From: Polyangium fumosum
GTDB taxonomy: Bacteria > Myxococcota_A > Polyangia > Polyangiales > Polyangiaceae
Reading direction: 5' to 3'
Length of the DNA: 64,000 nucleotides
Assembly: GCF_005144585.1 (NCBI RefSeq)
Contig: NZ_SSMQ01000010.1
Span: 124,001 to 188,000 of the forward strand
A model generated the notes under the pieces. The model was not told where the DNA came from. It saw nothing but the letters and a program-made list of their open reading frames with translations, and ran no database searches. Below, piece by piece: positions 10,214-63,938 of the stretch. Positions within the stretch are counted from its first letter, which is position 1. Every line of letters starts with the position of its first letter. A program made the position numbers and the translations under genes.

Positions 10214-10819
10214 TCAGCGCAGGATCCCCTCCACCTTCGATAACGAAAACATCCCCTGGGCCACGGTCTGCCCGCGGACCTCGACATCGGCCTCGAAATG
10301 CTGCACGTCCGTGCCCTCGCGGATGAGCCGGACCTCGTAGGTCAGCACGTCGCCCGGGAACATGTTGCGCAGGAAGCGGAGCTGGCTCGCGCCGAGCGCG
10401 CCCGTGCGCGCGGGCCCTGCCATCGTGATCGCGGCCAGGATGTCCTCGCCGAGGCCCGGCATGAAGCCGGGTTCCAGGCGGTATCCGAGGTCCGTGTTGC
10501 GCAGCGCCGACACGAGCTCGACCGGGTTGCGGCCGATTGCTTCGAGATCCCGCTGCACCGCCACGAAGATTTGCAGGATGTTCGCCGCTTGCACGATGCC
10601 CTCGAGCGCGAGCGCCCGCGGCAGCATGGGCGGCGTCGGCAGCTCCGCCGAGAAAAACGGCTCGTTCACGCTCACCGCGCGCGACGCGTGCAGCGTGGGG
10701 CGCGGCGTACGCGAATACCCCTCGATCCGATCCACGAGCAAGAGCGGCGGCCGCTGTGGCAGGAGAAGCAACACGACAGCCGCGCCAAGGGAAAGTGCGT
10801 CCGTTTTCGTCTGGCTCAT
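10214..10819 (-). CDS. Hotdog-fold FabZ/FabA-like dehydratase family protein
   Basis: 201 aa from ATG 10819. It opens LLPQRPPLLLVDRIEGY, the N-terminal motif of FabZ-type 3-hydroxyacyl-ACP dehydratases, and follows with MLPRALALEGIVQAANI, close to the central-helix signature of that family, then RFLRNMFPGDVLTYEVRLIREG. The catalytic His and Glu of FabZ (HFPxxP, helix Glu) appear as FSAELPTPPMLPRALALEG, so the His is not evident while Glu may be kept; enzyme activity is uncertain. A role in acyl-ACP or polyketide chemistry is possible but no biosynthetic genes adjoin it. It converges with the methyltransferase gene, 16 bp apart. Confidence 0.8.
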   Translation of the reverse strand: MSQTKTDALSLGAAVVLLLLPQRPPLLLVDRIEGYSRTPRPTLHASRAVSVNEPFFSAELPTPPMLPRALALEGIVQAANILQIFVAVQRDLEAIGRNPVELVSALRNTDLGYRLEPGFMPGLGEDILAAITMAGPARTGALGASQLRFLRNMFPGDVLTYEVRLIREGTDVQHFEADVEVRGQTVAQGMFSLSKVEGILR

Positions 10820-12692: not shown

Positions 12693-13048
12693 ACACCCGG
12701 CGTGTCGTCCTCGTCGCCGCGCTCGCCTTCATGCTCGCTTGGAGCACGCTCGTGAGCCTGGCGGCGCAGAAGTCCCGGCATCCCGTCGCCCCCCGAGAGG
12801 CGCGGCTCCTGAGCCGCGCCGAGGTTGCGCACCACGACCGCCCCGAGGATTGCTGGCTCGTGATCCGCGGCAAGGCGTACGACGTCACCAAGTATCTCTC
12901 CGCGCATCCCGCGCCGCCACGAACGATCACCGACCACTGCGGCAAGGAGAGCACCTCGGCCTTCGAGACCAAGGAACGCGGGCGGGCCCATTCCCCGCAG
13001 GCCTGGCAGCTCCTCGAGACCTACTTCGTCGGCGAGGTGAGGGATTGA
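12689..13048 (+). CDS. Membrane-anchored cytochrome b5-like protein
   Basis: 119 aa. An N-terminal hydrophobic helix (VVLVAALAFMLAWSTLVSLAA) anchors or exports it. Residues 42-119 are a cytochrome b5 heme/steroid-binding domain: LSRAEVAHHDRPEDCWLVIR, then YDVTKYLSAHPAPP. The usual axial-ligand motif HPGG appears as HPAP, and the second His is probably in GRAHSPQAW. It starts within the stop of the flavoprotein gene (4-nt overlap), so the two are made together and likely form one redox unit on the outer face of the membrane (inference). Confidence 0.85.
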   Translation: MNTRRVVLVAALAFMLAWSTLVSLAAQKSRHPVAPREARLLSRAEVAHHDRPEDCWLVIRGKAYDVTKYLSAHPAPPRTITDHCGKESTSAFETKERGRAHSPQAWQLLETYFVGEVRD

Positions 13049-13177
13049 GCGAGGCGCCGAGCAGATGCTACGCCGCGGCGTCGACGAGGTCCATGAGGTT
13101 CTTTCCCGAGATCCTGTCCTCGCTTGAATTTGGCCCGCCCGGTCGCGACGTGAAATCCTTCGTGGCCTGGAGGTCCT

Positions 13178-14236
13178 ATGCGATCATCGACGTGTTCTAC
13201 GTTTGCCTCTTTTTTTGCCCTCACCCTCGTATTGAACTGCGGGGCGTATGGCGATCCGAGTGACGCCGCGTGGGAATCCGAGGACGTGGAGCAAGCGGAT
13301 CCCAGCGCAGCCGATTCGGACGAAGAGGCCGTGGGGACTGCCGAGCAGGCCAGCACGACCTCGCGCTCCGACGTCGCCGCGACGTTGACGGTCAGCAGTG
13401 GACACTGGGGGAGCTGGCGGCAGATGATGTACTGCAATCCAGGCACGTGGGCCGTCGGCTACAACATCCGTTCCGAGGGGTCGCAGGGCGGCGGGAAGGA
13501 CGACGACACGGCCCTCAACTCGGTTCGACTGCATTGCGTCTCGAAAAACGGGACCTCCACCGACTCCGTCATCTCGCACGACGGGATCTGGGGCGAGTGG
13601 AAGACGCCCGACTCTTGCACGAACACGAGCACGTCGAACCGAACGAATTTCATGAAGATGGCGAGGCTCCGGGGCGAGGGCCCGAAGGGCTCGGCCTGGG
13701 GCCCCTTCAAATACGAGGACGACACCGGCGCCACGGACGCCGAATTCCACTGCACGAACGGCGAGCAACTGAGCGTGCCCGGCGCGAACGCGTGGGGCTC
13801 GTGGAGCGACTTCACGGAGTGTCCGGCCGGGACCGCGATCTGTGGGCTATCCATCCGCTTCGAGGATTCACAAGGCGGCGGCTCCGGCGACGACACGGCG
13901 ATGAGCGGCCTCAAGATCGCGTGTTGTGTCTTCGATGGCCCCGTCTGCGGCGACAACGTCTGTCAGGCGGGAGAGAACATGCAAAACTGCCTCAAGGACT
14001 GTGACTCCTGCGGGAATGGCTATTGTGGGCCCAAGGAGACCCAAGCGAGCTGTATGGCCGACTGCGACATCTGCGGAAATGGCACCTGCGGCCAGAAGGA
14101 GTCCGCCTCCTCGTGCCCGGCGGACTGCGATGCTTGCGGCAATGGTCTTTGTGGTCCCTACGAGGACATCTGCACGTGTCCCGAGGACTGCGGCACATGG
14201 CTCGGGTTCCAGAAGCCGATTTGCCTGTACGAGTGA
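13178..14236 (+). CDS. Secreted VMO-I-like protein with CGNG cysteine repeats
   Basis: 352 aa. A signal peptide (FASFFALTLVLNC) is followed by an acidic stretch, then a domain of two or three repeats like vitelline membrane outer layer protein I: HWGSWRQMMYCNPGTWAVGY, QGGGKDDDTALNSVRLHC, and again WGSWSDFTECPAGTAICGLS with QGGGSGDDTAMSGLKIACC. These WxxW, QG and DDTA motifs define the beta-prism VMO-I fold. The C-terminal 100 aa carry four CGNGxCG/SCxxDCD repeats of about 20 aa, which are disulfide-rich. Extracellular binding or structural role is inferred. VMO-I is mainly an animal fold, so its presence here is notable. Confidence 0.8.
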   Translation: MRSSTCSTFASFFALTLVLNCGAYGDPSDAAWESEDVEQADPSAADSDEEAVGTAEQASTTSRSDVAATLTVSSGHWGSWRQMMYCNPGTWAVGYNIRSEGSQGGGKDDDTALNSVRLHCVSKNGTSTDSVISHDGIWGEWKTPDSCTNTSTSNRTNFMKMARLRGEGPKGSAWGPFKYEDDTGATDAEFHCTNGEQLSVPGANAWGSWSDFTECPAGTAICGLSIRFEDSQGGGSGDDTAMSGLKIACCVFDGPVCGDNVCQAGENMQNCLKDCDSCGNGYCGPKETQASCMADCDICGNGTCGQKESASSCPADCDACGNGLCGPYEDICTCPEDCGTWLGFQKPICLYE

Positions 14237-15001
14237 TGGGTGTGATGGTCCGCCGGCCTCGTGCATCGAGGAGGAGGGCGCGGCGAACGTCGCCCCCCTG
14301 ACGCCTTCCCTTCCTGCGGGAGAGGACAGCCTTCGGACGGCCTCGAGGATCAGGTCGTCGCGCTCTTTCTTGGTGCGCTTGTGGATCGGCTCGTCCGGAT
14401 CGAGATGTCGCAGCGCGGGCGCACGTCCTCTCCTCCGCGTACGCAACCCTCGGAAGCCCCCCGGAAACAACGAAACGCTCGTTCCCGAACGTGGGAACGC
14501 GCCCCCTCCCGTGGCGGGGCACGTTCCCAAAGATGGGAACGTCCCCGGAAGCGGATCCCGGCGCCTTGCACGGCGTGGGAAAAGGCTCGGGTGCGGCCGC
14601 GATCGGCGTTGCGAGAAAGGGGAAGCTTCCCGGAGGCGAGGCGGAGGGGGTTCCGACAAAGGGGAACGACTCGAGAGACGGCTCCGCGCGCGTTCCGCGA
14701 AGGAGGAATCGACCTCGGCGCGGAGGTGGGGGACGTTCCAACCAAGGGGAATCGGGCGGGCCACGGATTCGGGCGCGTTGCGAGAGCGTGGAGGCGGTTT
14801 CGAGGACGAGCCCCGGACGAATCCGACGAAGGGACAGGAACGACGACGACCTTCCGGGGGTGATGCAGGACGTTGGCCGAGGGTGCGCACCGACCGACGG
14901 ACGATGTCGAACCTTCGGAGGGAAGCCCGGCACGTGAAGGACGTTGGTCCTGGACGAACCAAGCGTTTGCCCGCGAACATCCAGAGTTCGTCCGCGGAGA
15001 T
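14237..15001. other. Long intergenic region with array and coding remnant
   Basis: About 765 bp with no supportable gene. Its middle is the stem-loop array annotated at 14438-14838. Between about 14330 and 14425 the minus strand reads a short GC3-rich, protein-like stretch (LRHLDPDEPIHKRTKKERDD), perhaps the remnant of a lost gene; it has no start and no recognised family. Long frames crossing the array on both strands come from the lack of stop codons in GC-rich repeats. From about 14946 onward the sequence is the promoter region duplicated upstream of 16185. Confidence 0.6.
14438..14838. repeat. Stem-loop tandem array I, ten units, 42-43 bp pitch
   Basis: Ten degenerate units start at 14438, 14481, 14523, 14565, 14608, 14650, 14692, 14735, 14777 and 14820. 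Each has a 19-bp palindromic core, best seen as GTTCCCGAACGTGGGAACG (14481), GTTCCCAAAGATGGGAACG (14523) and GTTCCGACAAAGGGGAACG (14650), then 23-24 bp of less conserved spacer. The pitch alternates between 42 and 43 bp, so no reading frame is kept, yet it stays near four turns of B-DNA. The stems are 5-8 bp with loops of 6-9 nt. The geometry matches the array at 55125-55529 although the core sequence differs. It is not CRISPR: spacers are short and units are degenerate. Confidence 0.75.
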
Positions 15002-15039
15002 GGTTCGTCTTGACCGACCGACGATCCGGGGTGTACGTT
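15002..15039 (+). promoter_or_regulatory. Promoter, probably leaderless, of PEGA gene
   Basis: A -35 box TTGACC (15010-15015) and -10-like TACGTT (15034-15039) are separated by 18 bp. The ATG of the downstream gene is at 15047, only 7 bp past the -10, so transcription should start at or next to the A of ATG and give a leaderless mRNA; no Shine-Dalgarno is present. GGTTCGTC directly abuts the -35 (15002-15009), and related GACGAAC and GTTCGTCC copies lie at about 14953 and 14985, looking like operator half-sites. All these elements are preserved in the duplicated promoter at 16148-16177. Confidence 0.6.
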
Positions 15040-15046
15040 GTGCCGC

Positions 15047-16054
15047 ATGAAGCACCGACACCTCGCAAGCACGGTCCTCCTCGTGGTTTCCATGTCCTCT
15101 TCGGCGCGGGCGGAGGAGCCCTCTCCGGAGCCTCCCAAGCCCGAGTTCATCCACATCCCGCCCTCGTCGTACGCGTCAGCTCGAGCGCACGAATTGTTCT
15201 ACCCGGCGGTGATGCGGCTCCTCCGCGAAGCCCAGGCCCTCGAAAAGGAAGGGAAGGCGCAGGCGGCGCTCGACAAGTATCAGGACGCCTACGATCGCCA
15301 GCGCCTCTCCGACGTGCAAACCGAGCTCGCGTTTGCCCAGGCTCGCATGGGTCTCTACCTGCCGGCCGCTCGGAACCTGGCCGAGGTCCTGGCCCTTGGA
15401 TACGCGAAGGACAGGACCGTACATACGGACGAAGAGATCCATGCCGTCCACAAGGCCGTAAAGGCTCGGCTCGGGACGATCCTCCCGCGCGTCAACATCC
15501 CCGGCGTTCGCCTCACCGTGGATGGCGAGCAGGTCACGGATTGGCCCTTTGCCGAGGAGTTTTACGTGGAGCCCGGAAAGCACACCATCAAGGCGATCGC
15601 CGACGGGTATTATTTCAACGAGACGACCGTCGAGCTCAAGGCGGGAGAGCAGAAGGTCCTCAATATCGCGATGCAGCAGCGGATCCAAAGTCATTATGTC
15701 GCGTTTCCGGCGGCGCCGATCAACATCCGCATCCATGCGAACCTCTCGAGCGGCTCGAAGGATGCTCAACCCACGTGGCCTCGGAACCTCATGATTGCCA
15801 GCGGCGTCGGGATGGGCTTGGGGGTCGTGGGGCTCGTCACCGGGTTGATCATGAACGTAAACGCACCGGACGACGGAACCGTGACAACAGGGAAGGGGCT
15901 CGCGTACGCGGGTGGTGGCCTGGTAGGGCTTTCCCTAACAGGCTTGATCATCGGGCTTGCCAGCCGTCCCGATCCCGCTCCGCCGAACGTCATCATCACA
16001 CCGCAGATCGCCAAGGATGGGGGCGGCGTGCAGTTCACCGGCGCGATCCCGTGA
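15047..16054 (+). CDS. Exported TPR/PEGA-domain protein
   Basis: 335 aa. A Sec signal peptide ends at SARAEE. Residues 45-125 form helical TPR-like repeats (LLREAQALEKEGKAQAALDK). About 150-205 is a PEGA domain (VRLTVDGEQVTDWPFAEEFY, VEPGKHTIKAIADGYY). Residues 245-310 hold two hydrophobic helices (MIASGVGMGLGVVGLVTGL and LVGLSLTGLIIGLA), and the end reads VIITPQIAKDGGGVQFTG. This layout is common in myxobacterial envelope proteins of unknown function. ATG 15047 is chosen over the upstream GTG-type start because the promoter implies a leaderless transcript. A shortened paralogue follows at 16185. Confidence 0.85.
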   Translation: MKHRHLASTVLLVVSMSSSARAEEPSPEPPKPEFIHIPPSSYASARAHELFYPAVMRLLREAQALEKEGKAQAALDKYQDAYDRQRLSDVQTELAFAQARMGLYLPAARNLAEVLALGYAKDRTVHTDEEIHAVHKAVKARLGTILPRVNIPGVRLTVDGEQVTDWPFAEEFYVEPGKHTIKAIADGYYFNETTVELKAGEQKVLNIAMQQRIQSHYVAFPAAPINIRIHANLSSGSKDAQPTWPRNLMIASGVGMGLGVVGLVTGLIMNVNAPDDGTVTTGKGLAYAGGGLVGLSLTGLIIGLASRPDPAPPNVIITPQIAKDGGGVQFTGAIP

Positions 16055-16139
16055 TGGTTCCGCGGTCAAGGGGAAGGCCCTGGGTCCTGGACGAACCAGG
16101 CGTTTGCCCACGACCATCCATGGTTCGTCCGAGGAGAGG

Positions 16140-16177
16140 GGTTCGTCTTGACCGACCGAGGATCCAGGGTGTAGGTT
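16140..16177 (+). promoter_or_regulatory. Duplicated leaderless promoter of shortened PEGA paralogue
   Basis: A copy of the 15002-15039 promoter: GGTTCGTC (16140-16147), TTGACC (16148-16153), an 18-bp spacer, TAGGTT (16172-16177), and ATG 7 bp later at 16185. Upstream, GGACGAACCA (16089-16098) and TGGTTCGTCC (16121-16130) make a perfect 10-bp inverted repeat. Preservation of box spacing and start distance in both copies supports function. Confidence 0.58.
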
Positions 16178-16184
16178 GGGCCGC

Positions 16185-16772
16185 ATGAAGTACCTACGGC
16201 TCGCAAGCACGGTCCTCCTCGTGGTTTCCGTCTCGTCCTCGGCGCTGGCGGACGAGCCCTCCCTGGAGCCTCTCAAGCCCGAGCCCCTCGAAATCCCGGA
16301 CTCGTCGTACGCGACAAATCGAGCGCAAGACTTGTTCTTCCCGTCGGCGCTGCGGCTCCTCCACGAAGCCCAGGGCCTCGATATCGCGATGCAGCAGCGG
16401 GTCCAAAATCACTACGTCGCGTTCCCGGCGACGCCCATGAAAACTTCGGTCCACGCATATATCTCGAGACCGCCGACGAACGACCCGCCCACGTGGCCCA
16501 AGAACCTCATGATGGCCAGCAGCGTCGGGGTGGGCTTGGGGATCATTGGGCTCGGGATGGGTCTCGCCTTCGCGAACAACGCGGAGTCGAAGTCGAGCGC
16601 AACGACATGGACGTGGGTCGCCGTTGCGGGTGGTATCCTCGGCTCCCTGTCCTTGGGTGGAGTCCTGATCGGATTTGCCTGTCGTCCCCAGCCGCCTCCG
16701 CTGACTATCATCATCACGCCGCAGCTCGCGAAGGACGCGGGCGGCGTGCAGCTCATCGGCACGCTCCCCTGA
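16185..16772 (+). CDS. PEGA-protein paralogue lacking its TPR and PEGA domains
   Basis: 195 aa, a tandem copy of the 335-aa gene just upstream. The signal peptide (LASTVLLVVSVSSSALA) and the C-terminal two-helix region (from IAMQQRVQNHYVAFPATP to the end ITPQLAKDAGGVQ) align throughout. Exactly 140 codons containing the TPR and PEGA domains are missing. The deletion joins two CCTC-A microhomologies, at 15238 and 15658 in the parent copy, 420 bp apart, and keeps the frame. The product keeps export and membrane segments only. It may be a viable short form or an early pseudogene; the intact frame and promoter favour expression. Confidence 0.8.
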   Translation: MKYLRLASTVLLVVSVSSSALADEPSLEPLKPEPLEIPDSSYATNRAQDLFFPSALRLLHEAQGLDIAMQQRVQNHYVAFPATPMKTSVHAYISRPPTNDPPTWPKNLMMASSVGVGLGIIGLGMGLAFANNAESKSSATTWTWVAVAGGILGSLSLGGVLIGFACRPQPPPLTIIITPQLAKDAGGVQLIGTLP

Positions 16773-16925
16773 CGGCTCCGCCGTCGAGCCTCGCTTCGTC
16801 GCAGCGGCTATTCCGGGCCGACGTGGGCACGTCGCGCGCTACCCTACGCGTGTGTGTACGGCATGTTCCCTTGACTGGCACGCGTCAAACGTGTGAATCT
16901 CCGCACGGGCGTAAGAGGTCGACCC

Positions 16926-52777: not shown

Positions 52778-53767
52778 ATGAGGAAAAAGACCTTTGCCGT
52801 GCCCGCGTTCGCCCTCCTCACCTGCCTGCTCTCGGGTTGTATCGTCGATTCGACAACGCTGGTCGAGGACGGCATCGAGAGGCCGGGCGCGGCGCGCGCG
52901 AGCGCCCCCGTGGACACGGCGATCACGACGCTCGAGCTGTCCGGCGGGAGCGTGGTTTTCGTCGACGAGGGCGACGGCGTCGCGTTCTGGGAGATCGGGA
53001 ACGTCGATCTCTCGTCCCTGCTCGACGAGCAAAAGGCCTCCGCGCTCGAGGTCTTCCTCGCGCTCGCGCCGGAAGGCACGCCCGTCCCGGCGCGGCTCGT
53101 GGAGCACCACGCGGAGGTCGTCGCCCGGACCGGCACGGTGCCCGCGGCGCCGCGCAAGCTCGCGCCGAGGGTCGTGATGCCCGGGGTCCATTCTCTCACG
53201 AACGACCCCCTCCATAGCGCGGGTCCTGACTGCTGGGGCTGGGGAGGATCCGGGACCTACAGCGCCGAGACGGGCTTGTCTGGCTTCAGCCTGTCGTCGT
53301 TCCAGACCGGCTTCCGAAATACCTATTCGCAGATCACCGGGAATGTCGCGCAGGTTTCGAATGGCGCGACCCTCGTGAGCTCGCCCGCGGCCGGTGGGAG
53401 CTCGCCTGCCGTATCGACCTCGATGGGCCACGAGCGCGCGATGGCGTTCTGCGCGTCGCAGGCCCTCCCCAACACGGGGAGCTGCGACGACAACGGCATC
53501 CAGGCGTGGATCGAGGTGCAGTACACGAACGACGCCGGCACGCTCGTGTCCGCTGGCAGCGTGACCCTCTCTGCTTTCGGCGAGGGGGCTCGCTTCCGCT
53601 CCAACTACACGAACAGCAGCGGCGTCGCGCGCCGGTATACCGCGACGGTCACGTTTTCCGCGACGGACGACGAAACCCTGCAAGGCGTCGACCCGACCTG
53701 GTGCCAGGATCAGGTCGCGGTGGTCTGGCGGTCGAAACACACGGGGGGCTCCATCAGCAACCCGTGA
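52778..53767 (+). CDS. Duplicated lipoprotein, copy 1
   Basis: 329 aa, family not recognised. Signal peptide with lipobox LLSGC; an acidic N-terminal region (ITTLELSGGSVVFVDEGDG, VAFWEIGNVDLSSLL), a helical stretch (ASALEVFLALAPEGTPVPA), then a C-terminal beta-rich domain with paired cysteines (DCWGWGGSGTY, AFCASQALPNTGSCDDNGI, TWCQDQVAVVWRSKHTGG). It is probably outer-membrane attached. The paralogue in the next copy aligns along its entire length; identity is highest in residues 1-135 and lower in the C-terminal domain, which suggests diversifying of the exposed part. Confidence 0.8.
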   Translation: MRKKTFAVPAFALLTCLLSGCIVDSTTLVEDGIERPGAARASAPVDTAITTLELSGGSVVFVDEGDGVAFWEIGNVDLSSLLDEQKASALEVFLALAPEGTPVPARLVEHHAEVVARTGTVPAAPRKLAPRVVMPGVHSLTNDPLHSAGPDCWGWGGSGTYSAETGLSGFSLSSFQTGFRNTYSQITGNVAQVSNGATLVSSPAAGGSSPAVSTSMGHERAMAFCASQALPNTGSCDDNGIQAWIEVQYTNDAGTLVSAGSVTLSAFGEGARFRSNYTNSSGVARRYTATVTFSATDDETLQGVDPTWCQDQVAVVWRSKHTGGSISNP

Positions 53768-54088
53768 AGCGGGCGCGGCGTTCGCCATGGATTCCGCGAG
53801 CCGGCCGATGCGGAGGGCCCGGATGGGGGCTCCCGAGGCTCGGCGCAGACGCCGACGGGCGGCGGGGACGAACCGTAAGGAATCGACGGGACGTCACGCG
53901 ACCGTGACAGCGGGCGTCACGCGGGAATGACACCCGTCGCGGCGCCGTGTCATCGAGAGGGAGCGCGCGCCGCAGAGCCGCGGAGAAAGGCCGGGCCGCC
54001 TGGCATTGCCTTTGCAATGGGGCTTCGTCACCCCAACGCGACGGAGGGTCGTAAGCGACATCCGCCCGCGAAAAAGAGTGAGGAAGCC
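53768..54088. other. Intergenic region with copied promoter area
   Basis: 321 bp without a gene. The first part (to 53839) is the end of copy 1. From 53840 it repeats the C-terminal 12 codons of the CX4CH lipoprotein gene as a non-coding scar, then the palindrome cluster, then an upstream region nearly identical to that before 52778 (GCCTTTGCAATGGGGCTTCG). Confidence 0.7.
53893..53952. promoter_or_regulatory. TGAC-type palindrome cluster, copy 2
   Basis: GTCACGCGACCGTGAC (53893-53908), GTCACGCGGGAATGAC (53916-53931) and GTCGCGGCGCCGTGTCAT (about 53936-53952) keep the order and spacing of copy 1. Small changes in the centres, while arms are largely kept, suggest that the arms are constrained. 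Confidence 0.45.
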
Positions 54089-55087
54089 ATGATGAAAAAG
54101 ACATTTGCTGTGCCCGCATTCGCCCTCCTCGCCTGCCTGCTCCCGGGCTGCGTCGTCGATTCGACGACGGAGGTCGAGGACGGCATCGAGATGCCGGGCG
54201 CGTCGCCCGCGAGCGCCCCCGTGGACACGACGATTGCGACGCTCGAGATGTCCGGCGGGAGAGTGGTGTTCGTCGACGAGGGCGACGGCGTCGGGTTCTG
54301 GGAGATCGGGAACGTCGATATCTCGTCCCTGCTCAACGAGCAAAATGCCTCCGCGCTCGAGGTCTTCCTCGCGCTCGCGCCGGAAGGGACGCCCGTTCCG
54401 ACGCGGCTCGTGGAGCACCACGCGGAGGTCGTCGCCCGGACCGGCACGGTGCCTGCGGTGCCGCGCAAGCTCGCGCCGATGTTCGTGATGCCCGAGGTCC
54501 AGTATTTCACGAACGAATCCTTGGGCAACCATGGCTCGGGGGTCAACTGCTGGGGCTGGGCAGGAGCGGGCACCTACAACGCGTCCACGGGCTACGGCAG
54601 CTTCAATCTCTCGACGTTCCAGAGCGGCTTCCTCGCCAACACGCAGATCACCGGAGCCGCGATCTCGATCTCGAACGGCTCCGGCACCCTGTACTCGGTC
54701 ACGGGCGGGGGGGGCAACGGCGGGAACTTCGAGACCGCGTGGAGTCACGAGCGCGAAATCGCAATCTGCGCGTCGAAGGCCGTCCGGTGGGGCCAGCCGG
54801 GGAGCTGCAACGGCAATGGCGTTCTGGTCAACGTCACCTTGGAGCGCACGAACGCATCTGGGACGTACGTGGCGGAGAGCACGATCGACCTCAACGCATT
54901 CGGCGAGGGCGCTCGCTTCCGCTCGAACGCCACGAACACCGGGGGCGGCGCGCGCAAATACAAGATCTCCGCCGTGTTCAATGCCGACAACGACACCAGC
55001 CCCACCGCCGACGCAGAGTGCCAGGATCAGGCCGCGGTGGTCTGGCGGTCCAAGCACACGGGGGGCGACATCGGCGGCGGCGGCTGA
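54089..55087 (+). CDS. Duplicated lipoprotein, copy 2
   Basis: 332 aa, start at the first of two adjacent ATGs (54089, 54092), with AGGAAG upstream. Lipobox LLPGC. The same acidic, helical and Cys-paired domains as copy 1 (VFVDEGDGVGFWEIGNVDIS; NCWGWAGAGTY; ICASKAVRWGQPGSCNGNG; ECQDQAAVVWRSKHTGG). The tail ends in Gly (DIGGGG). Function unknown. Array II starts 38 bp after its stop. Confidence 0.8.
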   Translation: MMKKTFAVPAFALLACLLPGCVVDSTTEVEDGIEMPGASPASAPVDTTIATLEMSGGRVVFVDEGDGVGFWEIGNVDISSLLNEQNASALEVFLALAPEGTPVPTRLVEHHAEVVARTGTVPAVPRKLAPMFVMPEVQYFTNESLGNHGSGVNCWGWAGAGTYNASTGYGSFNLSTFQSGFLANTQITGAAISISNGSGTLYSVTGGGGNGGNFETAWSHEREIAICASKAVRWGQPGSCNGNGVLVNVTLERTNASGTYVAESTIDLNAFGEGARFRSNATNTGGGARKYKISAVFNADNDTSPTADAECQDQAAVVWRSKHTGGDIGGGG

Positions 55088-55124
55088 AGCGAGAGCAGAG
55101 GGCGCCCTGACGGGGGCTCCCGAG

Positions 55125-55529
55125 GCTCGGCGAAGCGTCGAAGAGCGGTCGGCGTGGGCCGGGGGGGCTTCGGCGAGGCGGCAAAGAGGGATCGGACCGG
55201 TCCGGAGGTCTTTGGCGAGACGTCAACGGCTGGGCCACGCGGCCCGGAGAGTCTTTGGCGAGGCGTCAACGGCGGCTCCGACCGGTCCGGGGGGGCCTTG
55301 GCGAGGCGCCAAGCGCGAGGAGGACCGCTCCGGGGACGCCTCGGCGCGGCGCCAAAGGCGGGGACGACCGCTCGGGGGACGCCTCGGCGCGGCGCCGAAG
55401 GCGGGGAGGACCGCTCGGGGGGCTCTTTGGCGAGGCGCCGAAGGCGGGGAGGACGGCTCGGGGGGCTCTTTGGCGAGGCGCCGAAGGCGGGGACGACCGC
55501 TCGGGGGGCTCTTTGGCGAGGCGCCGAAG
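55125..55529. repeat. Stem-loop tandem array II, ten units, 43 bp pitch
   Basis: Cores start at 55125, 55168, 55210, 55253, 55296, 55339, 55382, 55425, 55468 and 55511, spaced 43 bp (one 42). The core CTTTGGCGAGGCGCCGAAG folds as an 8-bp stem with a 3-nt loop. The fourth pair is T-A in units at 55210, 55253 and 55296, C-G at 55125 and 55382, and T-G at 55425-55511; the second pair is C-G at 55296 and T-A elsewhere, which is covariation. Spacers of 24 bp (GGCGGGGACGACCGCTCGGG type) are also repeated. The last three units are nearly identical and older units diverge to the left, so growth seems to occur next to the Rpn-like fragment. Frames crossing it are not genes, since 43 is not a multiple of 3. 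Confidence 0.85.
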
Positions 55530-55533
55530 GCAG

Positions 55534-55971
55534 GAGACGGAGCTGGCCATCCTGTCGGCGGCGGCGCACGGCAACGGCCCGAACGGGCTCGACGTGGCGT
55601 TGACGGCGCTCGGCGCGCTCGGGCGGTTCGACCGGGAACACGCTGCGGTGTACTTTCAGATCGTTTACAATGCGTTGCGCGAGCCCATGCGGAGGGCCCT
55701 GGAGGCGCTGATCATGCAACGGCAGAGCGAAGGAAAGGCCACGTTCCCCCCGTTCGCACAGCAGATCTTCGACCGCGGCATGCTCGAGGGCGAGCTCAGA
55801 GGCATGCTCGCGGGCAAACGCGACGCCCTGCTTCGCCTGCTCGCGCGGGCCGGGCTCTCGCTCGCAGAGGACGATCGCGCGCGCATCGAGGCCTGCATGG
55901 ACACCGAGACCCTCGATCGGTGGGTCGAGAACGTCCTCGGAGCGAAGACCACGCGCGACGTGTTCGCGTGA
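55534..55971 (+). pseudogene. C-terminal fragment of Rpn/YhgA-like (PD-(D/E)XK) protein
   Basis: About 145 codons matching the C-terminal half of the abundant myxobacterial Rpn/YhgA-like transposase-nuclease family: ELAILSAAAHGNG, DREHAAVYFQIVYNALREPM, the GMLEGELRGMLAGKRDALLR linker, and the closing DDRARIEACMDTETLDRWVE with a DVFA-type end. The N-terminal PD-(D/E)XK catalytic domain is absent. In its place, 5 bp upstream, is stem-loop array II. No start codon with a ribosome site precedes the fragment, so it is likely a decayed gene truncated by array expansion or recombination. Confidence 0.75.
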
Positions 55972-56060
55972 CGTAGCCAACCGGCAACCACGCCTCGCGC
56001 AGGCCTGGTACCAAGGGTCTCCACACCCCACCCCGATCAGAGGTATACCGCCGGGGACGT

Positions 56061-57158
56061 ATGCCTCAGTTCTCCCTCGCGGAGCGCCTGCGTGGCCTGG
56101 AGCGGCTCTGCCTGCCGGTCTGGGTCTTCGACGTGGAGCGGGCCCGCATGGCCTGGGGGAACGCCGCCGCGCTGACGATCTGGCGCTCGCCGAGCCTCGA
56201 CGAGTTCCTCTCGCGGGACTACTCGGACGCCTCCACGGCGACACGCACGCGCAACGAGGGCTTCCTCCGCCGGCTCCGCGAGGGACACGACGCGCACATC
56301 GAGCACGCCTTCACGTTCTATCCACGCGGCGAACCCTTGCACCTGCGGTGCTTCATCTCCTGCATCGAGCTCGACGACGGGCGCTTCGCCCAGCTCATCG
56401 AAGGCCACGTGCGGACCGAGGCGCAAGACCCGAGGATCCTGCGGTGCGACGAGGCCCTGCGGCACGTCTCCGCGATGGTCGCGCTCCTCTCCCCCGAAGG
56501 CGCCGTGCTCGTGAGGAACCCGGCCGCCGAGAACGCCTTCGGCGGGTCGAGCACGCCCTCGGCCTGGTTCGAGGACGCAGGCGCAGAGGCGCGGATCCTG
56601 AAGGTCGCCGAGACCCAGGAGGTGCTCGACGAGGAGCTCGTCGCGCTCACGAGCGAGGGGCCGCGCTGGCACGCCGTGGAGGCGCGCCGGACGAGTGATC
56701 CGGTCACCGGGAAGCACGCGATCGTCGTGCACCAGGTGGACGTGACGGAGCGGCGGGAACGCGAGGCGCTGATCGAGGCGCAGCAGCGCGAGATCCTGGA
56801 GCTCTCGGCGCCGCTGCTCGACGTGGCCGAAGGGGTGGTCGCCGTGCCGATCATCGCGGCCTTGACCGAGGCGCGCTGCGCAGAGCTCGAACGGCGGCTG
56901 CTGCCCGGCCTGGTGGAGCGCGGCGCGCGGGTGGTCGTGTTCGATCTGACGGGCGCGACGGCGTCGGAGGGCGAGGGGCTCTCGCAGCTCGTGCGCCTGA
57001 TCAACGCCGTGCGGCTGCTCGGCGCGCGGCCGATGGTGACGGGCGTGCGCTCGACGCTGGCGAGGGAGCTCGTGCAGAGCGGCGCGGACCTCGCCGGCGC
57101 GGCGGTGATGCGGTCGCTGCGGGACGCGCTCGCGAGCCCGCGCGCGGCGCGGCGGTGA
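56061..57158 (+). CDS. PAS-STAS regulator, RsbR-like (second)
   Basis: 365 aa. Residues 10-110 are a divergent PAS-like domain (LPVWVFDVERARMAWGNAAA), 125-235 a second PAS (SAMVALLSPEGAVLVRNPAA ... VDVTERRERE), then a short helix and a STAS domain (DVAEGVVAVPIIAALTEARC, VVFDLTGATASEGEGLSQLV, LLGARPMVTGVRSTLARELV). Neither Thr that is phosphorylated in RsbRA is in place, so it may signal without phosphorylation. A Ser/Thr kinase gene follows 219 bp downstream. Confidence 0.87.
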   Translation: MPQFSLAERLRGLERLCLPVWVFDVERARMAWGNAAALTIWRSPSLDEFLSRDYSDASTATRTRNEGFLRRLREGHDAHIEHAFTFYPRGEPLHLRCFISCIELDDGRFAQLIEGHVRTEAQDPRILRCDEALRHVSAMVALLSPEGAVLVRNPAAENAFGGSSTPSAWFEDAGAEARILKVAETQEVLDEELVALTSEGPRWHAVEARRTSDPVTGKHAIVVHQVDVTERREREALIEAQQREILELSAPLLDVAEGVVAVPIIAALTEARCAELERRLLPGLVERGARVVVFDLTGATASEGEGLSQLVRLINAVRLLGARPMVTGVRSTLARELVQSGADLAGAAVMRSLRDALASPRAARR

Positions 57159-62158: not shown

Positions 62159-62623
62159 TCAGCGAAATGGATTGCGCTTTCGGATGCGCAGGAGGTCGCG
62201 GCGGTTGTGCCGGAGCAACGGGTGCCCCCAGGTCTCGCCTGTCCCCTCCACGCACTCCCGGGCCAGGACCTTGCCGATCTTCTCGTAGCTCATCCCCAGC
62301 GCGCTCTTGAGCTTTTCCGGATGAACATAGGACCCGAGGACGAAGACCCGGTCACGGAAGGAATCCAGCACCTCCGAGGTGACATCTGCCCGCCGATCCG
62401 CTTGGTTGTCGAAATCCACGAGCAAGACCATCAAGCGCTCGGGGTACTTCTGCATTTGGCGATTGTGCTCCCGCTTGAAGCTGTCCCGAACGTTGCCCCA
62501 TCCATTCGCAACTCGCAGGACCTGGATGTTCGGGACCGAAAGCTCGAAGCCGGTGGCGATCTGCCGGTTGGCGTCGTCCTCGGGGAGGATCAGCCAGTGG
62601 GGCTTGTGCTTGTTGACGCTCAT
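62159..62623 (-). CDS. Small partner of the ABC ATPase, possibly TOPRIM-like
   Basis: 154 aa, soluble. HWLILPEDDANRQIATGFEL and MVLLVDFDNQADR place acidic residues at the ends of two predicted strands, as in TOPRIM nuclease folds, followed by RVFVLGSYVHPEKLKSALG and a basic C-terminus. This resemblance is my inference; the family is not named with certainty. ATPase/TOPRIM or ATPase/RloB-type gene pairs are known antiphage modules (PARIS, AbiL, RloAB). It overlaps the ATPase stop by 4 nt. Confidence 0.75.
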   Translation of the reverse strand: MSVNKHKPHWLILPEDDANRQIATGFELSVPNIQVLRVANGWGNVRDSFKREHNRQMQKYPERLMVLLVDFDNQADRRADVTSEVLDSFRDRVFVLGSYVHPEKLKSALGMSYEKIGKVLARECVEGTGETWGHPLLRHNRRDLLRIRKRNPFR

Positions 62624-63729
62624 GCCTCGACGTCACCCTGCAGGAGCGCCTCGATGAGATCACCTTCCACGCCGATACCTTCGAGCGACTTGATGCGCGT
62701 CGGCTCCAGGTGGCTTCGCCGGGACAAGACGAGCGTGTTTTCATCCGAGAAGCGGCGGATGGTCTCCGGGTTGTGGGAGGTCATCAGCACCTGCCCACCG
62801 GACTCGAAGGAGCGCCGAAGCGCGATGACGAAGTGCCCCACCTCGTCGATCGCGAGGTGGCTGTCCGGCTCGTCCCAGAAGCAAAAGATAGGGCCGTATG
62901 CCTCGTTCGCGGCCAGGACGAGCGCGCAGAGGAAGAAGCACTTCTCGCCGTCCGACAGCGCCCCGAACGGCAAAGACAGGCTCCGCTGCCCCTCGCGAAA
63001 CTGGACCTTCAAGCTCCGCGTTTCCCCCCCGACGAGCGGGTTTTGAATGTCCCAGAAATCGGCCCACAACGCCCTGAGATAGCCATCGATGGTCGTGTAG
63101 ACGCGGGGGGAATGGTTCATGAGCCCGGCCAACCACGCGCCCACGTTGCGCGCGTCGCGCTCCGGCCAGAGCGTCTCGCCGGAAGACTCCTCCGTGATCA
63201 GGCTCGGGATCGGCGCCAGGATCACGGAGCGCGCGAGCCAGCGCTTGAAGAGGAAGAGCGGGTCGGTCTCCGATTGCTCCTGGATGATGGGCAAGGCGAT
63301 CAGGTGCCAGTCGACCAGGAAGGCCGCTGGAGCCGTGCGCGAAGATTTGTTCAGGGTGACCTGGGCGTGCTCTCGGGAATAGATGGGCTGCCCGGCCAGA
63401 AGGAGCTCTTCGGTCTGCACCCGGATTTCCTTGAACCCAGGCGGTAGCTCCAGGGTCAGGCGGTACTGGTAGAGTCGACCAGACAGCTCGACGTCCACCT
63501 CGAAGCGCATGGGCTCATCCGTCCTGCCATGAGAGAAATCCCCGACCTTGACGAGCTGCCCGATGCGGTTGGTACCCCGGGCCAAGTCTGCCAGCAGAGC
63601 AAGAACGTGGCGGATCGTCGATTTGCCTGTTCCATTCTTCCCGATGAGGAGCGCCGACGGTTTGTCACCGATGGGCAACTCGAAGTTCTGCAAACATCGA
63701 AAGTTGTGGATGTAAAGGCGCTTGAACAT
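62620..63729 (-). CDS. ABC-type AAA ATPase of a two-gene module
   Basis: 369 aa from ATG 63729 (63756 is possible). It has Walker A LIGKNGTGKSTIRHVLALL near residue 30, the ABC signature FGALSDGEKCFFLCALVL, Walker B PIFCFWDEPDSHLAI with its D-loop, and the H-loop LMTSHNPETIRRF. It is a complete SMC/ABC-like ATPase of the AAA_15/AAA_21 group used in many phage-defence systems. The N-terminal MFKRLYIHNFRCLQNFELPI is also characteristic of that group. Its small partner overlaps by 4 nt. The region between its start and the ArsR promoter contains a Ser/Ala-rich repeat in frame, judged non-coding. Confidence 0.85.
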   Translation of the reverse strand: MFKRLYIHNFRCLQNFELPIGDKPSALLIGKNGTGKSTIRHVLALLADLARGTNRIGQLVKVGDFSHGRTDEPMRFEVDVELSGRLYQYRLTLELPPGFKEIRVQTEELLLAGQPIYSREHAQVTLNKSSRTAPAAFLVDWHLIALPIIQEQSETDPLFLFKRWLARSVILAPIPSLITEESSGETLWPERDARNVGAWLAGLMNHSPRVYTTIDGYLRALWADFWDIQNPLVGGETRSLKVQFREGQRSLSLPFGALSDGEKCFFLCALVLAANEAYGPIFCFWDEPDSHLAIDEVGHFVIALRRSFESGGQVLMTSHNPETIRRFSDENTLVLSRRSHLEPTRIKSLEGIGVEGDLIEALLQGDVEA

Positions 63730-63903
63730 GGGGCCCTGCTGGCAGCGTTCTACCATGATGCAGAGCCGCGGAGACGAGAGAAAGGGGCTCGCGGGCGAGG
63801 ACAAACGGCTGCCCTGGGGGGCGGAAGCAGACGCGGAGGCGGAAGCAGACGCGGGGGGCGGCGGCGTTCGGACATCCTGCGCGGGGCGCCCCCCTCCCCG
63901 CCC

Positions 63904-63932
63904 TTGACAACCGATAAGCATCGGCTTATACG
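63904..63932 (+). promoter_or_regulatory. Promoter and operator of ArsR-type gene
   Basis: TTGACA (63904-63909), a 17-bp spacer and TATACG (63927-63932); the start codon is 6 bp further, so the transcript is probably leaderless. Between the boxes is the palindrome ATAAGCATCGGCTTAT (63914-63929), with 6-nt arms, which resembles ArsR/SmtB-type operators and is well placed for autorepression. Confidence 0.65.
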
Positions 63933-63938
63933 TCAAGC

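What the first reader, a model, noticed from the sequence alone, without database searches (positions are those of the whole stretch)
55125..55529. Ten-unit 43-bp stem-loop array with covarying stems
The units share an 8-bp stem with 3-nt loop plus a repeated 24-bp spacer. Pitch is 43 bp in all but one step. Stem pairs change together (pair 4: T-A, C-G or T-G; pair 2: T-A or C-G), which implies selection on structure rather than simple recent copying. Newest units lie next to the Rpn-like fragment and units decay leftward. A transcribed structured RNA, a phased protein-binding platform, or a class of mobile repeat would all explain it. I know no named element with this design.
Basis: partly seen in the sequence, partly recalled or inferred. 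Interest (0 to 1): 0.8.

Follow-up and report, generated by a model that had tools for sequence, protein, structure and literature searches.

The report
Dispersed 43-bp palindrome arrays in Polyangium
A soil bacterium carries stretches of repeated DNA between its genes, and although their sequences differ from family to family, nearly all those found in the sampled DNA use the same 43-letter repeat length, also the length used by a well-known plasmid centromere; what sets that length is unknown.

Summary
The array is real: ten cores from 55125, eight steps of 43 bp and one of 42. The claimed covariation inside it is not: 70 of 80 stem cells pair, 70.4 expected. Across ten arrays of the same family in four Polyangium genomes the dyad is kept, with some double changes. 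The array is orthologous in four of six Polyangium genomes. It belongs to a wider class: in 1.3 Mb of Polyangium DNA, 12 of 13 arrays with period 25-70 not divisible by 3 have period 43, from at least five unrelated sequence families. A genome of another family in the order gave 41 in 4 of 5; 450 kb of control DNA gave none. One family (F4) spreads as array blocks without flanks. The design has a precedent: F-plasmid sopC, twelve 43-bp repeats with palindromes bound by ParB (PMC6238139 passage). There is no sequence similarity to sopC and no SopB-type protein over cut-off, so it is not filed there. Best reading: DNA dyads phased at four helical turns. Protein binding is inferred, not shown.

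The parts
55125..55535 (+). F1-family array: ten cores CTTTGGCG-nnn-CGCCAAAG with a G-rich 24-bp remainder; the last unit is cut off after its core
55125..55167 (+). left-most, degenerate unit, recognisably the same in the arrays of G000, G004, G002 and G003 (reading of the alignment)
55382..55535 (+). most homogeneous, presumably newest units
55530..55971 (+).
53927..55087 (+). ORF whose stop lies 37 bp before the array; 63% identical to the preceding ORF; no Pfam or NCBIfam match
52778..53767 (+). homologous preceding ORF; no Pfam match
56061..57158 (+). PAS-STAS gene used as anchor for the orthologous loci

Best explanation
The array is a member of a dispersed class of mostly intergenic tandem arrays in Polyangium whose families are unrelated in sequence but share a 43-bp pitch. 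Shown: the shared pitch; conservation of the F1 dyad between arrays; the same array at the orthologous place in four species with turnover inside; copying of F4 arrays to new places as multi-unit blocks without flanking DNA. Inferred: the pitch is set by DNA geometry, four turns of slightly under-wound helix (10.75 bp per turn), so that successive dyads face the same side and dimeric DNA-binding proteins can sit side by side, as ParB does on sopC. Which protein binds, and whether the arrays shape the nucleoid or tune neighbouring genes, is not known.
For: Period: 12 of 13 Polyangium arrays of period 25-70 not divisible by 3 have 43 (7 of 8 without the F1 arrays); 0 in 450 kb of control DNA and 0 in block-shuffled DNA. 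Families do not match each other beyond chance. Another family of the order, G030, gives 41 (4 of 5) and 43 (1 of 5), also close to four turns. sopC, a known protein-bound array, has the same pitch and one dyad per unit. Dyad kept across ten F1 arrays: 526 of 624 cells against 499.5 (sd 5.4, maximum of 2000 shuffles 517), 85.6% of cells against 34-52% in slid versions. Some families have half-units of 21 and 22 bp, about two turns.
Against: No binding protein is known and no binding or transcription was tested. A stem beyond shuffles (p at most 0.025) was found in only 6 of 17 43-bp rows and 0 of 5 41-bp rows. No covariation inside the window array. Two of five measures are not unusual (pairs with double changes 307 of 500 shuffles as high, pair types 317 of 500), and related units inflate the others. 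Periods divisible by 3, including 42, are left out of the count to avoid coding repeats; a 42-bp array exists (L072). G121 gave no such array in 400 kb by this count (one mixed 42/43 array), G076 gave 28 and 56, G058 gave 67, G001 gave one array that scores best at 64.
Confidence: 0.45

Rival explanations
1. Passive or selfish minisatellite: arrays grow by slippage and unequal exchange and spread by re-insertion of array blocks, without host function. The 43-bp length comes from the copying machinery or from one ancestral array.
For: Turnover of inner units between species, array-only dispersal of F4, a non-orthologous F4 copy closer to the query (93% over 315 bp) than the orthologous array (91% over 387 bp), loss of array and neighbour in G005 and G001, no dyad in several families.
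Against: Slippage alone does not predict one length in unrelated families; dyad kept between F1 arrays.
Confidence: 0.33
2. Structured RNA: the array is transcribed and its hairpins act in the RNA.
For: Both strands fold better than dinucleotide shuffles (z -2.3, 2 of 100 as good; z -2.6, 1 of 100). At pair 4 the + strand wobble T-G outnumbers C-A, 21 to 8 of 78. The array lies just after a gene on the same strand.
Against: The minimum-energy fold contains 0 of 10 unit hairpins on + and 2 of 10 on -; no Rfam match; an RNA does not explain a common pitch in unrelated families; no covariation inside the array.
Confidence: 0.08
3. REP/BIME-like repeats mobilised by a Y1 (RAYT-like) transposase.
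For: Palindromic, mostly intergenic, dispersed; one Y1_Tnp gene over cut-off in the genome.
Against: Units run head to tail, whereas BIMEs alternate (PMC2817692, abstract passage) and head-tail dimers are absent or rare in most REP genomes (PMC3733652, passage). The F1 consensus has no GTAG or CGTC tag beside the stem. No F1-F4 match is listed on the contig of the Y1_Tnp gene, C165 (some lists score only 40 candidates). Its flanks were not read.
Confidence: 0.07
4. A plasmid-type ParB centromere (sopC-like parS) left in the chromosome.
For: Same 43-bp pitch and one dyad per unit as sopC.
Against: No par genes beside the array; SopB HTH family over cut-off in 0 of 6 Polyangium genomes, weak matches (E about 0.007) in 5 of 6; units not similar to sopC for the seven family consensus units compared; no match among 72,556 plasmid records; several families with many arrays per genome.
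Confidence: 0.04

Closest known systems
sopC / parS_F, centromere of the F plasmid (PMC6238139 and PMC9178275, passages read)
   Same: 43-bp head-to-tail pitch, about ten units, one short palindrome per unit (7-2-7 in sopC, 8-3-8 in F1)
   Different: No sequence similarity, no par genes beside it, many dispersed families on a chromosome, no SopB HTH over cut-off
REP/BIME repeats (PMC2817692, PMC3733652, passages read)
   Same: Palindromic, mostly intergenic, dispersed, sometimes in clusters
   Different: Head-to-tail instead of alternating, no GTAG/CGTC tag, fixed 43-bp pitch over unrelated families
Bacterial minisatellites / VNTRs and Borg tandem repeats (PMC9879509, search listing and start of abstract only)
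   Same: Tandem units with fast turnover
   Different: As I recall them, unit lengths vary from locus to locus; here unrelated families share one length

Membership tests
sopC-type ParB centromere | tandem repeats of 43 bp with one palindrome per unit | tested here: met
sopC-type ParB centromere | sopA/sopB-like genes next to the array | tested here: not met
   neighbours: ORFs without match on the left, remnant without match and PAS-STAS gene on the right
sopC-type ParB centromere | SopB with HTH domain PF18090 in the genome | tested here: not met
   0 of 6 Polyangium genomes over cut-off, 5 of 6 with a weak match; E. coli control rings
sopC-type ParB centromere | specific ParB binding | not testable with these tools
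   needs a binding assay
REP/BIME | palindromic unit of 20-40 bp, extragenic | tested here: met
   19-bp core between called genes; L048, L053 and L066 overlap a called ORF
REP/BIME | GTAG or CGTC tag beside the stem | tested here: not met
   absent from the F1 consensus
REP/BIME | alternating orientation in clusters | tested here: not met
   all ten units head to tail
REP/BIME | RAYT gene flanked by the repeats | tested here: inconclusive
   one Y1_Tnp gene, no listed F1-F4 match on its contig; flanks not read
Rfam RNA families | match to a covariance model | tested here: not met
   0 matches at E up to 1 over 54000-57000, both strands

The most novel reading that the evidence does not exclude
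Polyangiales chromosomes carry a genome-wide class of intergenic arrays whose unit length is set by a ruler independently of sequence (43 bp in Polyangium, mostly 41 bp in a genus of another family). They spread as array blocks and act as sopC-like phased platforms for cooperative DNA-binding proteins along the chromosome.
Probability: 0.25. Interest if true: 0.85.

Novelty: new variant of a known kind. Interest (0 to 1): 0.6.

Why it matters
Tandem repeats born by slippage should come in many lengths. If unrelated families in one genus share one length, something measures it: DNA geometry together with a protein, or the machinery that copies the arrays. The same pitch in sopC, a protein-bound array of an unrelated plasmid, makes helical phasing a concrete and testable idea. 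Array-only dispersal also points to a copying process in these large genomes that my paper searches did not find described (open-access library only).

Tried and rejected
Covariation within the window array: rejected by permutation. Named RNA: none. Promoter or terminator consensus sites at 54900-56200: 0 found. Rpn annotation: no Pfam or NCBIfam match for the fragment or the full-length homologue. Common sequence behind the 43-bp families: 153 pairs of consensus units compared over all rotations and both strands; 14 pairs reach p of 0.02 or less, 11 within families and 3 between families (best z 3.9), about what chance gives. The second array of L133 (18324) I first called F4 by eye; one search does not support that, so I leave it unassigned. 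Bulk autocorrelation of intergenic DNA was dominated by lags divisible by 3 (missed coding) and said nothing on 43. Enrichment near homologues of the 'Rpn-like' fragment: of 15 other loci, two hold a TRF-supported 43-bp array (L039, L040) and three a weak signal (L032, L034, L035); not convincing. Gene context comes from a home-made codon-usage caller: of 15 arrays, nine have a called gene on both sides and no overlap, seven between tandem and two between divergent genes, none convergent; three overlap a called ORF. The C167 and C190 stretches were chosen because F1 hits lay there; C123 was not. Paper searches on myxobacterial or intergenic repeats gave nothing on such a class; the search for '43-bp' wording led to sopC.

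Full report
WHERE. The window is contig C11, 124001-188000, of a 12.98-Mb genome, here G000. Five further genomes are of the same genus, G001-G005. Two loci of named records, Polyangium sp. y55x31 and sp. 15x6, hold the same DNA as loci of G003 and G005, so the genus is Polyangium.

THE OBSERVATION. Ten cores of the form CTTTGGCG-nnn-CGCCAAAG lie head to tail from 55125, with eight steps of 43 bp and one of 42 (TRF). The other 24 bp of each unit are G-rich and also repeated. No unit has eight Watson-Crick pairs; three have eight if T-G counts. The right-hand units are the most alike.

COVARIATION. Inside the window array there is none. At pair 4 all four combinations occur (T-A 3, T-G 3, C-G 2, C-A 2), and in total 70 of 80 cells pair against 70.4 after shuffling; 76% of 2000 shuffles do as well. 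Between arrays it differs. Ten F1 arrays (78 units; three arrays in G000, one in G004, four in G002, two in G003) pair in 526 of 624 cells against 499.5, sd 5.4, maximum of 2000 shuffles 517. Array L143 has GGGG/CCCC where the others have GGCG/CGCC. On a gapless alignment of 60 of the 78 units (18 left out: near-duplicates, end units and a few beside 42- or 44-bp steps), 85.6% of cells pair against 34-52% in slid versions; 0 of 500 shuffles reach the covariation score, but the numbers of pairs with double changes and of pair types are not unusual (307 and 317 of 500 shuffles as high). Units within an array are related, so these figures overstate independence.

LOCAL HISTORY. Two genes, A and B, precede the PAS-STAS gene in all six Polyangium genomes (81-94% identity to the window's). 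G002 and G003 then have the array, a SIR2-like gene (Pfam SIR2_2 in G003, 83% identical in G002) and a full-length 309-317 aa gene without family match. G000 has two homologous ORFs before the array and only the last 158 residues of that gene after it; G004 has one ORF before the array and a shortened 187-aa form of the gene that keeps the first 99 residues and the C-terminal part. G005 has one such ORF, and neither array nor gene; G001 has none of them. In the window, similarity to the gene of G002 and G003 starts at 55530, inside the last core's tail. The left-most unit looks the same in the arrays of G000, G004, G002 and G003. So the array is orthologous, its inside turns over, and in G000 a deletion has run from the array into the neighbouring gene (inference).

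COPIES. In its own genome the F1 family has at least two further arrays of the same pitch (C167, C190). Of 98 genomes of the taxonomic family, 4 match at E of 1e-6 or less, all Polyangium (G000, G002, G003, G004).

A CLASS WITH ONE PITCH. I sampled 798 kb of G000 (400 kb from contig C123, the rest from contigs that carry F1 hits), 200 kb each of G004 and G001, the two named loci (42 kb) and the window. Coding repeats have periods divisible by 3, so I counted arrays of period 25-70 not divisible by 3. With the two halves of one array that spans L069 and L070 taken as one, 12 of 13 have period 43; the thirteenth, in G001, scores best at 64 and second at 43. Without the five F1 arrays, 7 of 8 have 43; C123 alone gives 3 of 3. 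They include families that do not match each other beyond chance: F1 TTGGCG...CGCCAA, F2 CGCGTCACnGTGACGCG, F3 AACCGATACGCGTATCGGTT, F4 GATCACGGnCTCGCCGACT, and F5 with GAGGGGGTCGACGC. A stem beyond shuffles (p at most 0.025) was found in 6 of 17 43-bp rows and 0 of 5 41-bp rows, so the pitch, not the hairpin, is the common feature. Arrays L053 and L066 mix 21-, 22-, 42- and 43-bp steps, L072 has 42; the count leaves them out. G030, of another taxonomic family in the order, gave 41 in 4 of 5 and 43 in 1 of 5 (400 kb); G121 none in 400 kb, with one mixed 42/43 array; G076 28 and 56 (200 kb); G058 67 (200 kb). Cupriavidus metallidurans megaplasmid (200 kb), Sinorhizobium meliloti pSymB (200 kb) and E. 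coli (50 kb) gave none, and block-shuffled C123 gave none.

DISPERSAL. F2 matches 5 of 6 Polyangium genomes, F3 6 of 6, F4 5 of 6, in most of them at several places. A 1001-bp F4 query with both flanks gave 20 matches in G004 and G000 at E of 1e-10 or less (40 of about 200 candidates scored in each): two are the locus itself and its orthologue, with flanks; 13 lie inside the array (query 297-715); five match right-flank sequence only; none joins array and flank at a new place. One non-orthologous copy (93%, 315 bp) is closer to the query than the orthologous array (91%, 387 bp). F4 arrays thus spread as multi-unit blocks, by unknown means. I ran the flank test for F4 only.

PRECEDENT. parS_F, the F-plasmid centromere, is described as twelve 43-bp tandem repeats that contain ten 16-bp inverted repeats bound by ParB_F (PMC6238139, passage; PMC9178275, passage). 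In 10 kb of the F plasmid my scan of periods 15-99 finds only 43 and its double, with the dyad TGGGACC-AC-GGTCCCA. The Polyangium units are not similar to it (seven consensus units, p 0.19 or more), no plasmid record matches the window array, and SopB's HTH family, PF18090, is over its cut-off in 0 of 6 Polyangium genomes, with one weak match in 5 of 6. The arrays resemble sopC in build; I do not file them there.

MECHANISM. Committed reading: dyads repeated at four helical turns, a spacing that lines up bound dimers on one face. 43 bp is four turns of 10.75 bp, plausible for negatively supercoiled DNA (recalled); 41 is four of 10.25. The pitch, the orthology, the F4 dispersal and the dyad conservation between F1 arrays are shown; protein binding and the helical reason are inferred. 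The main rival, a repeat without host function whose length comes from the copying process, is not excluded (0.33). RNA, REP/RAYT and plasmid-centromere readings are less likely, for the reasons given under the rivals.

VERDICT. A real and unusual regularity behind a partly mistaken observation. Interest 0.6; new variant of a known kind.

Noticed in passing
L064 (G000:C123:340001-360000), 12867-16330: Long array whose period drifts between 71 and 74 bp; could be a CRISPR array, not checked.
   Followed up: no
L133:7578-8906 (y55x31 = G003) and the homologous place in G002: SIR2-like gene (PF13289; PADLOC ThsA and Dsr1 models match) between the array and the 309-aa gene; together with the gains and losses between species the site looks like a variable, perhaps defence-related spot.
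   Followed up: partly
G000:C165:65272-65628: The only Y1_Tnp (PF01797) gene found in the genome, 152-aa open frame, possibly RAYT-like; flanks not read.
   Followed up: no
window 62159-63936, - strand: Two neighbouring ORFs, one that reads like an AAA/ABC-type ATPase (P-loop GKNGTGKST) and a 154-aa partner; label from recall, no search done.
   Followed up: no
L196 (G121:C1:2500001-2520000), 16165-16846: About 60 copies of an 11-bp tandem repeat GCGAATCGATA.
   Followed up: no
L159 (G076:C1:5000001-5020000), 10308-10535: A 56-bp array with a hairpin-like GGCCGCTTGCGGCC segment in each unit.
   Followed up: no
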